Source: Romanomermis culicivorax (lineage: Eukaryota; Nematoda; Enoplea; Mermithida; Mermithidae). From it: 64,000 bases of DNA. Where the stretch lies: contig CAWUHX010000033.1 of assembly GCA_963922205.1 (NCBI GenBank), positions 186,001-250,000 on the forward strand. Reading direction: 5' to 3'. The notes beneath the pieces are model-generated. The model had not been told where the DNA came from. It ran no database searches and worked only from the letters and a program-made list of their open reading frames with translations. Shown here piece after piece: positions 21,314 to 28,810 of the stretch (positions within the stretch are counted from its first letter, which is position 1; each line of letters starts with the position of its first letter). The translations under genes were made by a program, and so were the position numbers.

Positions 21314-22420
21314 ATGGAAAAAAGTAAGCCCCTAGTTTTTTATTCCCACCCTTCCTGTTGAAAAAGTCCTATCCCATCATTCTAAAAGTTCCATTTACCA
21401 TTCCTCTCCCGTTTTCTCGTTGTTAACAAAATTCTGGCTGAACAAAAGAAAAGTTTGTCAGACCAATTTCGTCAAATTGAAAAGGAAGCAAAAAACCAAG
21501 TTTTGAACACCCGAAAAATGATCCACCCTGACCAGATCGATCAAATCGTTAGACATTCCATTGAACATGTTGTTGACGACAGACTTAGGGGTCTAGAGGA
21601 CCAGCTAAGAGATGTTATTCCTGGTCAAAATGCCCCAAATCGTGAAATAAATACAGTGTTGAATGATATCCGCCTAGCCAATTTCAGGAACAACCCATTC
21701 ATTCCCATCAGATCCCCACCCCTATTTTCCGGTTCTTTTGGTCAAAATTTTTTGGACTGGATAAAAAATTTTGAAACCTTCCTCACCTTTCAAGGCGTCA
21801 AACCTGACGATGAAGAAATAAGGAAAGCCTGTTTCGAGTCCTACCTTTCCGGACCTGCTCTAGCCACCCTGGATGATCTGAGGCTAAGACAGAACCCTCC
21901 CACCACATACGAGCAGTATAAAAACTGTTTCCAACGTTTATACCCCAATAACCGCGATTGTGATATTCATCAACAACTTTTGATGGAAAGAAAACAAAAA
22001 AGTTCAGAACTTGGCACTAAATTCCTTTCAGAACTTAGAAAAATTGCACGGCAAGCTTTCCCAAATTTGTCCTTGGAGGATAGAGAAAACCTGATAAAAC
22101 CCATATTTTTACGAGGCTTAACGCCGGAAATTCGTGAAATTTTGAGATACCGTGAATTCGCAAACTTAGATGAAGCCCATAAGGCTGTCATGTACGTAGA
22201 ATCTCAACGAGCCCGACCTGGTTTCTCATCATCTATTCCCAGAATACCCCCCAATGACATGGTTGCAACAGTTACCCAAAGTAATATTGAACGTTCTTTA
22301 CTTGACCTCACAGATAAAATGTCAAAACTTTTCGACCGAAAAACGACCCCTCCACCAGTTTCCTGCACTTATTGTGGCAAGAGCGGCCACTTGGAAAACG
22401 TGTGCCGCAAGAAACAATGA
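21314..22420 (+). CDS. gag: Gag, with one CCHC knuckle before a TGA
   Basis: The frame is open from 21386 to the TGA at 22418-22420, but its first stretch has no ATG. The only good start is ATG at 21314, in a 10-base leader that ends at a GTAAG donor (21324); splicing to the TTTGTCAG acceptor (exon resumes at 21462) keeps the frame exactly. The protein is then about 320 residues. It has a charged N-terminal half, a retrotransposon Gag core around 21700-22200 (FLDWIKNFETFLTF, LYPNNRDCD, FLSELRKIARQAFP) and the CCHC knuckle CTYCGKSGHLENVC at 22364-22405. A second knuckle lies past the TGA in the same frame, so either the TGA is read through or it is a recent mutation (CGA to TGA). Confidence 0.75.
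21324..21461 (+). other. candidate intron in the 5' leader of the LTR element
   Basis: 138 bp bounded by GTAAGCC and TTTGTCAG. Removing it joins a 10-base AUG-containing leader to the Gag frame in phase. The pyrimidine tract before the acceptor is weak. Not verified by any RNA evidence. Confidence 0.45.
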
Positions 22421-25400
22421 GACGACCAACGAAAAACCAGTTATCCCCGCAGGCCCAACACGTGGAAACCTGACACGGGTCACCGGCGGCCCTATTCGGA
22501 ACACCAATGGTCCAACCAAAATCCGCCCAAACCCCCAAATAATTTTGGCCATTCCAATAACAGCTGCTTTAACTGCGGCGAGCGTAACCATTTGGCCAGG
22601 CATTGCACAGCGCCACGGAAAAGTAAGTACCCATCCAATATTCACCAACAATCCTGCTCCCCAGATATTGCCGTCTCTTCCCCCCTCGATTTTGATGATA
22701 TAGAAATGTTCCTCCAATGTTCAGGACAACAGACAGCAGGCCACATCAATACGTTGTTTACGAAAAGCAACAACCCCAACCCAAAAAGTAAGTCGGTCCA
22801 GATGGCCATGACCGAAAATACCCAAACCACCCAACCACCCATCTCCTTGTTAAAAATTAAATTTTCCCCAAAATTGCAAAAATTGGGCCCTTATTTTTTT
22901 CAAGCAATTTTCAAAAATCCAAATCCGAAAAAGCCGAAAAAACCCACTCCCAACACCAATCAAGAAACGAGCCCTAGAACCCCAAGCCCTGCCCCATCGG
23001 CTGAACGTCAACGGTTCCCATCACAATCATCGGCAGCGTCAGCCCAATCCACTCGCCCACCAACCCCCAAATCGCCAGCCGAATTTCAAGTTGAGATCGT
23101 CTACCCAGACGATATGGAAGACGGTGAATATACCAAAGAATCCCCAAAACCCAATTTAACCCAGAATTCGTTTTTTGTTCAGGCGAGATCACCAACGCAG
23201 CCTGAAGACACCAAACGCCGACTGAGGCGAAACGAAAAGTTTTGGCAACCCAACATAATTTCTTTTTTATGTTTCTTGTCGTTTTTTTTCGCGCCAATAA
23301 ATGGCACATTTCAATTATGTGGTATGTCTAGGAGTGGCCATGCAATTGACATCCCGAAAAGTGTCCAATGTGAAGCCCCAAATTCCCCTGCCCATCTCAG
23401 TAAAATAGTGGCCGATGTCTATATTCCAAAAACCCAACCAGATACCGCCCCTGCCTTCAAATGTCAAATGCGTACGAGAACTATTTGTACAAACACGGGA
23501 TTTTTCGGATCAAAAGGCATTGTCCTGGACTCCTCAAAAATTGCCCCAATTCCCGCGTCCGAGTGCAGAGAAGCATTTTTCACCAAAAGTTACCAAACAA
23601 AAAACTTGACCCACGTCTCCCCCCGTTTTTGGAGCACAGAAAACCCACTAAAAGTCGATTTTAAGTGGTGCTGTAGTGATCATTGTACTACAGTAACAAA
23701 TTTGATTATTGAAGAAGGCAACGTTGCCTCTTGGGACCCTGATCATTTGACCACCGATTTAGGCAACTCCGGCGGTTGCAAGCCCCTAGCCGGACAGTGC
23801 ACTCTCACTGATGGAATAATTTTGTGGGACGATACCAAATTCAAGGACACCTGTTCCCTCCAACTAAAAGGCACATATAACGGAACCCTAAGCGATAATT
23901 ATGTTGTCATAGACGCTATTCAGGGCGCATTTACCCTAAAGTCTGCTTACACTCAATGTTCCAAAATTGAAAAAGCCGTCCTAACCCACCAAGGAGTCAT
24001 TTTAGTGCTTAAAAATATGACCCAACTCGCCTCATCAAATTCGGATGAAAATTCAGACCCTATGAACCCAGACCCAGTGAATGCGAAGTTAAATTTCTTA
24101 ACACAAAAAATTTTGGACTTGGAATACGAAAATTTCCGAAATGTTTGGTCAGAATTGTGTCGTCAAGCCCAAGGATATCTTGACATCATTTGGCAACTTT
24201 TACATTTTGACCCCACCCTTGGTGCCCGTGCATTTTTACATCAGACTGATATAATCGCCGAGTTTACTGGCGATGTTCTTACCATCTCAAAATGTAAATC
24301 CCTAAATGCCACAGAAATTTTTACCTCCCATAAAGTGAATGAAACGTGTTACAAAAACCTTCCCATCAGAATTAATGATACACTTTGGTTCGTGACCCCC
24401 GGCACCTTTGATCTCCTTCCTTTTAGCCCAAAAATTGATTGCCATCATCGACCCATAAGCATATACAAAAATGGAGACAAATGGATGACAGAAACTGGAC
24501 CCACCCACGTCACTACAGTACCCGTTCAAGTTTTCTGGCATGGAAAATACAAAGTTTTTCATTTTGACTCACCAGCCATTTTTCATGATCAGTTAGGATC
24601 TATCCCCTCCAATTTAGCTTTTTTGAAGCAGTACATGTACAAAGTACACAGCTTAGAAGCTAATGTGCATAGAATAATGAACTATACTTCAGAAATGTCG
24701 TTGAATCCCTCCGTCATTTACGAAGCCCTGTCAGGAGCAGGCCAAGGCATGTCAAAGGCCATGCAAGGATATTCCAAATCATTGGAACAGATTATCGGTG
24801 GCATATCCCACAGTGCTACAGATGGCTTGAATAACCTGCTGAAAGGTCCCTTACAATTAATCTTTAATGGTCTAGTGGTCATAGCCAGCATTGCTGCAGT
24901 AGTTTTCGTCCTCTTTTGGTCTTGTGCGTACCTCCACAACATGCGCGCCAAAAGAATGCCCCCACTGTTGCCATCTGCCGCATCCCTTTACGAAAATCCC
25001 CACCATTCTAGCGAAGACCCGCCTCCTCTACCAACCCTTGGACAAGCCCTGTTCCAACTTGTAGCCCACCACGCCCAAAACTCGGAAGCCACTCACACGC
25101 GCAGCAGCAGCATTTGTTACGTGAAACGAGCAACTCCTAGTGCCCCATCCCCCCTATTTCATTTTGCATCCGAAAATGATATAATTGATAGAATCCCACA
25201 TGTTTTGCTTACAATTAATAACCAAAAAACCGTTTATGCTATGGTCGATTCTGGCGCAGCTTACTCGATCATGGATAAAAAAGTTGCAAGTTCTATTAAT
25301 GACCTTGTCTGGAAAAATTCCCCCACTATCATGGCCACCGCTGCAAATAAACTCCCTATCCCCTTAGTAGGTTCGGCCATCGTGACTCTAAAAGTGGACG

Positions 25401-27169: not shown

Positions 27170-28810
27170 GTCACGGTCCACACTGATCACACAGCCGTAA
27201 AAAGCATTTTGGAAAAAGAAAATAACCCATCCCCCCAAAGTTGCTGTTGGGGCTTTGCCCTAAGTGACTTTAAGCTTAACATCCAACCCAGAAAAGGCAC
27301 AGCTAATGGAAATGCGGACGCTTTATCCCATACTCCCCTTCCCACCACCCGTTCTGCTTTTGATATTGACAATTTTTCACAGTCCCGTCCTGAGCAACCC
27401 ATGCCCATCAACAGTGTTTTAGAAGCAGAAGCTTCAGAAAACGAAGAAATATTGAAAAATTTCCGAGAACAGCAGCTTTGTGACCCTATCCTTCGGAAAA
27501 TCAAAGAACAAATAGAAATCGGAGACCCTGTCCATGTTCAAAATTTCTCCCTCGAAAATGACTTGATTTATAAGCAACAAGGCCCCCTCAAAAAACTCTA
27601 TGTACCCAGTGCTCTCCAACAAACTATTATCAAGGATAACCATGATAATAAGTTTTCCGGCCATTTTGGAATAAGAAAAACGATCAACCTTACCAAAAGA
27701 AAGTATTTTTGGCCGGACATGGCAAAAATGATCACTGATTATTGCCGATCATGCCACCCTTGTCAAGTGAATAAACCCACACACCATAGAATTACGGCTA
27801 ATCTGGTTCCCATCCAAGTCAAAGGCCCATTTGAAAGGGTAGGTGTTGATTGTGTTGGTCCCATGACCCTTTCTGAACATGGAAATCGTTTTATCATCGT
27901 TTTTATCGATTATTTCACAAAATATGTTGAAGCTATAGCCACCCCCGATATTACAGCACTTACCGTTGCCAAAGCTTTTGTCAAAAAAATTGTTTGTAGA
28001 CACGGAGCTCCCAAAATTTTGCACTGCGACCGTGGCACTGATTTTACTTCCATCCTCATGACCGAAGTAACTCGACTTTGTGAAACCAGAAAAGTCCACA
28101 CTACCCCCTACCATCCCATGGCCAATGGCGAAGTCGAACGTGCAAACCAAACCCTTGTTGTCCGCATGCGGATGTATGTTGACGATTGGCATACTGATTG
28201 GGATGATCATCTCCCTTTTGCCATTTTTGCCACAAATATTCACCAAAATGAAAGCACTGGCTATTCCCCCTTTGAATTGTTATATGGTCGACAACCGGAC
28301 CTCCCGTCGGATATTTCTCGAACCCCACCATCGCCCTACGCTATAGACATGAACGATTATGTCAATGACGTCAAACATCATTTTCACACCGCTTTGACCG
28401 TTGTCCAGGACCGCATCAGAAATAGCCAAGCTCTTTATTCAAAAAAGTATGACATGAAAACCAACAACCACGAATATAAAGTTGGTGACCTGGTCCTCAA
28501 ACCCGTCCAAACGTCTAAGTTGGCCCCCCTACACCTTGGTCCCTACAAAATTATGTGGATATCCTAGCCCAACCTCTGGATCTATAACCCCAAAACGGAT
28601 CGAGAAGAGGCAATTCACGTCAACAATACGCAGCCGTATCATCCCAAAGTCAATGTCCGTTCAAATCAACCAAACGATGAAAATCAACGATGTCCCGATC
28701 CAGAAAACACCTTCCGCCGAGTTCAACGTAGCTCCACCCACCGTTCTGCTCGACCCAATTCGCCAGCTTCGATCGAATTGTGACCTGCCCAAACGAGGAC
28801 GTTTGCTTTA
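27170..28810 (+). CDS. RNase H end and integrase
   Basis: Continues in the same frame after the TAG at 27167. The RNase H end (TDHTAVKS) is followed by a linker. The integrase zinc region has GHFGIRK and CRSCHPCQ (near 27655-27765). The catalytic triad is intact: D in VGVDCVGP, D in HCDRGTDFTS and E in NGEVERANQTL. The frame meets a TAG at 28565 (after KIMWIS). The same frame then stays open to about 28782 with PNLWIYN and an Arg/Ser-rich tail, so the TAG is probably a late mutation near the C-terminus. Confidence 0.85.

What the first reader, a model, noticed from the sequence alone, without database searches (positions are those of the whole stretch)
21386..28567. Ty3/gypsy-like element with an Env-like glycoprotein between Gag and protease
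In metaviruses and retroviruses Env normally follows Pol. Here one reading frame runs Gag, CCHC, signal-like segment, Cys-rich glycosylated ectodomain, membrane anchor, then protease (DSGA), RT (YLDD), RNase H and integrase. The LTRs are nearly identical and the active sites intact, so this arrangement moved recently as a working element and is not a rearranged relic. The ectodomain source is unclear; I see only loose resemblance to glycoproteins of chuvirus-like and BEL/Pao elements.
Basis: partly seen in the sequence, partly recalled or inferred. Interest (0 to 1): 0.9.

Follow-up and report, generated by a model that had tools for sequence, protein, structure and literature searches.

The report
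Retroelement with envelope inside its polyprotein
A family of virus-like jumping genes, probably in an insect-parasitic roundworm, carries a virus-type membrane-fusion protein in the middle of one giant protein, between its shell and enzyme parts, instead of at the end where such elements normally keep it.

Summary
The order is real. Between LTRs (20258-21291, 28824-29857; 9 of 1034 bases differ; TSD ATAA) one frame encodes Gag, a signal-like segment, a cysteine-rich ectodomain, a membrane anchor, then protease, RT, RNase H and integrase. The ectodomain is class III-type by sequence: Pfam Monjiviricetes_fusion E=3.9e-15; a family profile matches herpesvirus gB (E=3.8e-4). The fold itself is unconfirmed. 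The arrangement is general, though: of 79 env matches scored in the host genome, 31 lie in open frames of 2471-2687 codons. Ten of those 31, chosen by me from five families with env 48-62% identical, all show the order in one frame, with TSDs and near-identical LTRs. Env is under purifying selection (dN/dS about 0.06 in the best-sampled pairs). Most likely mechanism (inferred): a Gag-Env-Pol polyprotein threaded through the ER by an internal signal and cut by signal peptidase and the element's protease. Single-ORF env elements are known (hookworm Atlas virus, env last). I found no internal env in the literature searched, but the key survey (Chary & Hayashi 2025) was not readable.

The parts
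20254..20257 (+). target-site duplication ATAA (left copy)
20258..21291 (+). 5' LTR, 1034 bp, TG...CA ends, with internal 40-bp tandem units
21294..21306 (+). primer-binding-site-like stretch TGGCGACCGTACC two bases after the LTR; tRNA not identified
21518..22417 (+). Gag: Ty3-capsid-like (E=1.2e-4, below Pfam's cut-off) and first CCHC knuckle (22364-22405, motif); ended by an in-frame TGA at 22418 in this copy
22421..23251 (+). rest of Gag: second CCHC knuckle (22565-22606) and poorly conserved linker to Env
23252..23305 (+). internal signal-peptide-like hydrophobic segment
23306..24856 (+). ectodomain of class III-type fusion glycoprotein (PF24664)
24857..24934 (+). transmembrane anchor
24935..25207 (+). 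tail up to protease; conserved GxALxxL block (25034-25060) and PSAP late-domain-like motif (25136-25147)
25208..25471 (+). aspartic protease, DSGA at 25247-25258
26210..26692 (+). reverse transcriptase, YLDD at 26537-26548
26879..27166 (+). RNase H, interrupted by TAG at 27167 in this copy
27170..28780 (+). end of RNase H and integrase (H2C2, rve); TAG at 28565 inside; frame ends at TGA 28781
28812..28823 (+). polypurine tract AAAGAAGGGAGG
28824..29857 (+). 3' LTR, 9 mismatches of 1034 to the 5' LTR
29858..29861 (+). target-site duplication ATAA (right copy)

Best explanation
This is a degraded but young copy of a Ty3/gypsy-type (Metaviridae-like) retroelement lineage that took up a class III (Monjiviricetes/gB-type) fusion glycoprotein, most likely once and before its present families split, and keeps it between Gag and protease in one ORF. 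Proposed working: translation starts at the Gag ATG. Gag folds in the cytosol; the internal signal segment directs the ribosome to the ER; the ectodomain enters the lumen, is glycosylated and disulfide-bonded; the TM stops transfer and Pol is made in the cytosol. Signal peptidase frees Gag from Env, and the element's aspartic protease frees Pol from the Env tail. Env, Gag and Pol are thus delivered to one membrane in equal amounts, and a P(S/T)AP motif recruits ESCRT for budding of an enveloped particle that fuses with other cells, for example soma to germ line. Shown: order, open frames, selection on env, hydrophobic segments, motif. Inferred: single acquisition, processing, topology, budding, fusion.
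For: Order in this copy. Own genome: 79 scored env matches (of 4127 first-look candidates), 57 of 79 without stops inside env, 31 of 79 in open frames of 2471-2687 codons. Ten copies fetched from those 31: 10 of 10 have 0 stops in env, one open frame across Gag, Env and Pol and 4-bp TSDs. LTR pairs: 9 of 10 are 99.6-100% identical; A2 has 6 mismatches plus one 40-bp gap, 95.7%. Pfam order in five representative copies of four further families: gag, CCHC, PF24664 (E 5e-17 to 3e-20), Asp protease, RVT_1, RNase H, H2C2, rve. gB profile match E=3.8e-4 for the sequence (0.0017 for the stretch), collinear for about 300 residues into the TM. Selection: env dN/dS 0.06 (42 S/10 N; 30 S/7 N) in the two C-family pairs, as in pol there, 0.03-0.05. 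Gag, env and PR-RT identities all put B, D and E nearest each other and A farthest. Frame: 0 stops in frame in 5 linker stretches of 205 codons against 34 and 47 in the other two frames. No AG|GTRAG donor from 250 nt before the Gag ATG to Env in 5 of 5 families. P(S/T)AP: exactly one in each of 5 families, expected about 0.06-0.11 each.
Against: The window copy has three stops and its env differs from copy A1 at 9 N/4 S sites (ratio 0.63), so it is decaying. No RNA or protein data. AF2 gave no usable fold. An in-frame Met lies 62-65 codons before Env in 3 of 5 families (A, B, E; not C or D) and Mets fall in or beside the signal segment in A, B, C and D, so separate initiation is not excluded. 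Weak splice sites cannot be excluded; only about 0.25 strong donors would be expected by chance in 2 kb (own arithmetic). The hydropathy threshold for the signal segment was missed in B and F1. In family C the late-domain motif sits in the Gag-Env linker, not the tail. Copies were chosen for open frames, so 10 of 10 is not a rate. Whether close env-less relatives exist was not tested (search did not complete).
Confidence: 0.65

Rival explanations
1. Same element, but Env is expressed from a spliced (or trans-spliced) or separately initiated subgenomic RNA, or the Env segment is an intron-like cassette removed to make Gag-Pol; the single frame is a by-product.
For: Retroviral ENV comes from a separate spliced mRNA, and Cer1 of C. 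elegans splices its extra ORF (PMC10309623, passages). Pyrimidine-rich acceptors exist upstream of env in 4 of 5 families. Met 62-65 codons before Env in 3 of 5 families.
Against: No strong donor in leader, gag or linker in 5 of 5 families (weak evidence). Poorly conserved linkers stay stop-free in frame. No Met position near Env is common to all five families.
Confidence: 0.24
2. The copy is a private rearrangement or relic: a glycoprotein EVE that fell into one gypsy element.
For: This copy has three in-frame stops.
Against: 79 env matches, 31 in open frames of 2471-2687 codons; five families with the same order.
Confidence: 0.01
3. The protein between Gag and PR is no fusogen any more: it has become a membrane anchor or scaffold for intracellular particle assembly, or a decoy.
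For: No R-X-K/R-R site in env of 6 copies or the window copy; fusion activity untested.
Against: The whole ectodomain with gB-like core, cysteines and TM is conserved and under purifying selection; not all class III proteins need furin cleavage (recalled).
Confidence: 0.1

Closest known systems
Atlas virus, Ancylostoma ceylanicum (Belpaoviridae; PMC9094657, passages seen)
   Same: Nematode LTR element; one uninterrupted polyprotein that includes an Env taken from an RNA virus (2828 aa there); identical LTRs
   Different: BEL/Pao not Ty3/gypsy; Env is last (Gag-Pol-Env) and of class II phlebovirus Gc type
Anakin BEL/Pao elements of mosquitoes (PMC7642597, passages seen)
   Same: LTR element with chuvirus-type glycoprotein
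   Different: BEL/Pao, mosquitoes; glycoprotein not described as internal to a Gag-Pol frame in the passages I saw
Jingchuvirales glycoprotein EVEs near Gypsy fragments (PMC10084718; abstract, results and discussion seen)
   Same: Glycoproteins of the same broad class beside Gypsy sequences; one event with two EVEs in Nematoda
   Different: Authors found no clear capture by Gypsy; the nematode EVEs were flanked by simple repeats and low-complexity sequence
Errantiviruses / envelope-carrying gypsy elements (Chary & Hayashi, eLife 2025: not held, not seen; cited in PMC13172572, passages seen)
   Same: Gypsy elements with env; some insect gypsy regions encode type III fusion glycoproteins (PMC13172572 legend passage)
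   Different: In the insect elements env is a third ORF (PMC12992720, passage); that an env ORF3 usually lies downstream of pol is said in PMC5408684 (passage). Whether the survey holds an internal env is unknown to me
Cer1 of C. elegans (PMC10309623, passages seen)
   Same: Nematode Gypsy/Ty3 element with no stop between gag and pol
   Different: Its extra ORF (CERV) lies after pol, is made from a spliced mRNA and acts in nuclear export of genomic RNA
Herpesvirus glycoprotein B
   Same: C-terminal half of the ectodomain up to the TM aligns with the Env profile
   Different: Separate gene in a DNA virus; only weak sequence similarity

Membership tests
Metaviridae (Ty3/gypsy) | PR-RT-RNase H-IN order with RT_RNaseH and H2C2 integrase domains | tested here: met
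   (that these Pfam domains are gypsy-typical is recalled)
Metaviridae (Ty3/gypsy) | TG...CA LTRs, PBS, PPT, short TSD | tested here: met
   4-bp TSD in 10 of 10 fetched copies and in the window; the tRNA for the PBS was not identified
Metaviridae (Ty3/gypsy) | RT placement inside a named gypsy clade | not tested
   no labelled reference tree was built; only a protein search
Errantivirus | env as third ORF downstream of pol | tested here: not met
   env lies between Gag and PR in the same frame
Errantivirus | baculovirus-F-type env | tested here: not met
   Pfam matches up to E=1 are PF24664 and, weakly, gB; no F protein
Class III fusion glycoprotein (Monjiviricetes/gB type) | significant match to a curated family profile | tested here: met
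   PF24664 55.3 bits against cut-off 27; 5 of 5 further copies tested pass
Class III fusion glycoprotein (Monjiviricetes/gB type) | class III fold | tested here: inconclusive
   gB profile match E=3.8e-4 with the C-terminal half, 0.08 with the full profile, 0.66 with one sequence; AF2 pLDDT 36, no fold search made
Class III fusion glycoprotein (Monjiviricetes/gB type) | membrane fusion activity | not testable with these tools
   needs experiment
Belpaoviridae | BEL/Pao-specific pol domains | tested here: not met
   no BEL-specific Pfam family among matches (which families are BEL-specific is recalled)

The most novel reading that the evidence does not exclude
A retroelement lineage has replaced the retroviral scheme (separate, spliced env) by a flavivirus-like one: a single membrane-threaded Gag-Env-Pol polyprotein in which host signal peptidase makes the Gag/Env cut, fixing Gag:Env:Pol at 1:1:1 and tethering Gag and Pol to the same membrane as Env. 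It would be a distinct way of building an infectious retroelement.
Probability: 0.48. Interest if true: 0.88.

Novelty: new variant of a known kind. Interest (0 to 1): 0.77.

Why it matters
It breaks the rule that env follows pol. It shows an env kept under selection inside the polyprotein through deep divergence of its families, and it makes testable how Gag, Env and Pol can be made from one chain that crosses a membrane. It also adds a class III, Monjiviricetes-type env to the ways in which gypsy elements become virus-like, in a host group (probably mermithid nematodes) that is barely sampled.

Tried and rejected
Private insertion: rejected by the other copies. Stop codons as recoding: TGA, TAG and TAG all occur here while the ten fetched long-frame relatives have none, so decay is simpler. 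AF2 of the Env with three sequences: useless, so no fold search was made and the second structure job was not used. Scans of viral contigs with Env, an RT/RNase H piece and an Env alignment: no relatives. Protein search of 5.8 billion sequences with Env and with an Env alignment: only P0003 (Romanomermis culicivorax) and P0124 (unnamed); candidates are limited to 0.55-1.75 times query length, so full polyproteins could not appear. The two frog proteins topping the PR-RT list (P0004, P0005): their scores come from two RT copies each, not from closeness. Another gypsy relic in the window (3.7-6.9 kb, minus strand) is 28-38% identical over its longer matches, and no Env match was found outside the element. 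Host species: not settled; the published Mermis nigrescens assembly (524 Mb, 867 scaffolds; PMC10989877, passages) does not match 359 Mb in 595 contigs. Literature: ten searches; in the listings, and in the passages or sections I opened, no element with env between gag and pol. Also opened without use: PMC12440569 (abstract and outline), PMC2577118 (one passage).
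Full report
Observation. The element lies at 20258-29857. Its LTRs are 1034 bp each, differ at 9 positions, begin TG and end CA, and are flanked by ATAA on both sides. A PBS-like TGGCGACCGTACC follows the 5' LTR and a polypurine tract precedes the 3' LTR. In the frame of the Gag ATG at 21518, pieces searched apart give: Ty3-capsid-like Gag (PF19259 E=1.2e-4, below its curated cut-off), a CCHC knuckle (20.7 bits, just below cut-off; a second is seen by motif), Monjiviricetes_fusion PF24664 (E=3.9e-15, above cut-off), aspartic protease, RVT_1, RNase H, H2C2 and rve. 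The frame carries three internal stops in this copy: TGA 22418, TAG 27167, TAG 28565. So the order is right, and the claim of an intact working copy is wrong.

Other copies. A six-frame search of the window's own genome (359 Mb, 595 contigs) with the Env segment scored 79 matches out of 4127 first-look candidates and says that counts are lower bounds. Of the 79, 57 have no stop inside env, 31 lie in open frames of 2471-2687 codons, and 32 belong to the window's own family (79-100% identity); the other 47 are at 45-48% and were not assigned one by one. I fetched ten copies, all taken from the 31 with long frames. In 10 of 10, env has no stop and the frame is open 641-810 codons upstream and 1258-1318 codons downstream, and a 4-bp TSD is present. 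LTR pairs are 100% identical in four (A1 1074 bp, B1 809, C2 900, E1 887) and 99.6-99.9% in five (B2, C1, D1, D2, F1); A2 has 6 mismatches and one 40-bp length difference. These are young insertions. Copies labelled C and F are one family (env 98.7% identical), so five families are represented: A (the window's), B, C/F, D, E. In five representative copies of the four further families the Pfam order is the same in 5 of 5; two matches fall below their curated cut-offs, Gag in family B (22.1 against 24.1 bits) and protease in family E (27.7 against 28.2).

What the ectodomain is. PF24664 scores above its cut-off in 6 of 6 tested copies, the window's included. A profile of the C-terminal half of Env matches herpesvirus gB in the PDB with E=3.8e-4 (0.0017 for the stretch), collinear over about 300 residues into the TM region; four further gB chains follow at E 0.008-0.05. 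The full-length profile gave only E=0.08 and the single sequence 0.66. Structure prediction with three sequences failed. I call it class III-type by sequence; the fold is not shown. The Env segments of 6 copies and of the window hold 16-18 cysteines and 7-10 sequons, with no R-X-K/R-R site.

Selection and history. Nei-Gojobori counts on separate pieces: env dN/dS is 0.06 for C1/C2 (42 S, 10 N) and C1/F1 (30 S, 7 N), 0.08 for B1/B2 (10 S, 3 N), 0.07 for A1/A2 (4 S, 1 N); D1/D2 env has no differences. PR-RT gives 0.04 and 0.05 for the two C pairs, 0.17 for B, 0.43 for A (2 S, 3 N) and 0.56 for D (1 S, 2 N), the last two on very few changes. The window copy's env against A1 gives 4 S, 9 N (0.63), as expected for a decaying copy. 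Between families dS is saturated in nearly all comparisons. Amino-acid identities in gag (B/D/E 51-53%, A to others 30-39%), env (B/D/E 60-62%, C to B/D/E 57-59%, A 48-49%) and PR-RT (B/D/E 65-67%, C to B/D/E 55-56%, A 53-54%) rank alike, which fits one acquisition followed by common descent; in RNase H-IN the contrast is weaker (C-E 61.1% against B-E 60.6%). No tree was built.

How Env is made. A hydrophobic segment precedes the ectodomain in the five families by eye on the alignment; a 19-residue hydropathy threshold of 1.6 was passed in A1, C1, D1 and E1, but not in B1 or F1. The TM peak passed in 6 of 6 copies. No in-frame Met near Env is common to all families, but A, B and E have one 62-65 codons before it, and A, B, C1 and D have Mets in or beside the signal segment. 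Between LTR and Gag there is no ATG, and the Gag ATG has A at -3, in 6 of 6 copies; transcribed LTR sequence was not examined. The Gag-Env linker (205 codons ending 25 codons before Env) is 21-32% identical between families, yet it has 0 stops in frame in five families (1025 codons) against 34 and 47 in the other frames; base shuffles give an open linker in 0-0.1% of 5000 trials each. The first 70 codons after Env show 0 against 11 and 17. This argues that the joins are translated. No AG|GTRAG donor was found from 250 nt before the Gag ATG to Env in 5 of 5 families, and pyrimidine-rich acceptors were found in 4 of 5; this is weak evidence because few strong donors are expected by chance. A polyprotein threaded through the ER is the simplest reading; processing is inferred.

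Late domain. Exactly one P(S/T)AP occurs in the searched cytosolic parts of each of five families: in the tail between TM and protease in A, B, D and E, and in the Gag-Env linker in C. Shuffles expect about 0.06-0.11 per family. That this motif recruits ESCRT-I in retroviruses is recalled knowledge. The tail also holds a conserved GxALxxL block.

Known relatives. Nematode belpaoviruses such as Atlas virus make a single Gag-Pol-Env polyprotein with a class II Env at the end (PMC9094657, passages). Chuvirus-type glycoproteins occur in mosquito BEL/Pao elements (PMC7642597, passages). A survey found Gypsy fragments near Jingchuvirales glycoproteins but no clear Gypsy capture (PMC10084718, results and discussion). 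Insect gypsy env is a third ORF (PMC12992720, passages), and some insect gypsy regions encode type III fusion glycoproteins (PMC13172572, passage). The metazoan survey of Chary & Hayashi was not held, so priority is not settled.

Host. The only database Env relatives found are a Romanomermis culicivorax protein (40% over 47% of the query) and an unnamed 253-residue fragment. A mermithid host is likely but was not tested independently.

Noticed in passing
window 3712-6888, minus strand: Second, degenerate gypsy-type element (RT and integrase pieces), 28-38% identical to these families over its longer matches; no Env match outside the described element.
   Followed up: partly
L014, L022, L026 (families B, D, E), start of pol: Protease active site reads DCGA, against DSGA in the window's family and DTGA in family C.
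   Followed up: no
window 20797-21059 and 29363-29625: Each LTR holds 40-bp tandem units; in one other copy (A2) the two LTRs differ by a 40-bp gap.
   Followed up: partly
P0006: An unnamed assembly protein has RT/RNase H 66% identical to the window's over 48% of the query, closer than the other families here (about 53% in PR-RT), so the window's family probably has kin elsewhere.
   Followed up: no
window 44684-45130, minus strand: Weak match to a PP2C phosphatase domain (E=6.4e-5), possible host gene exon.
   Followed up: no
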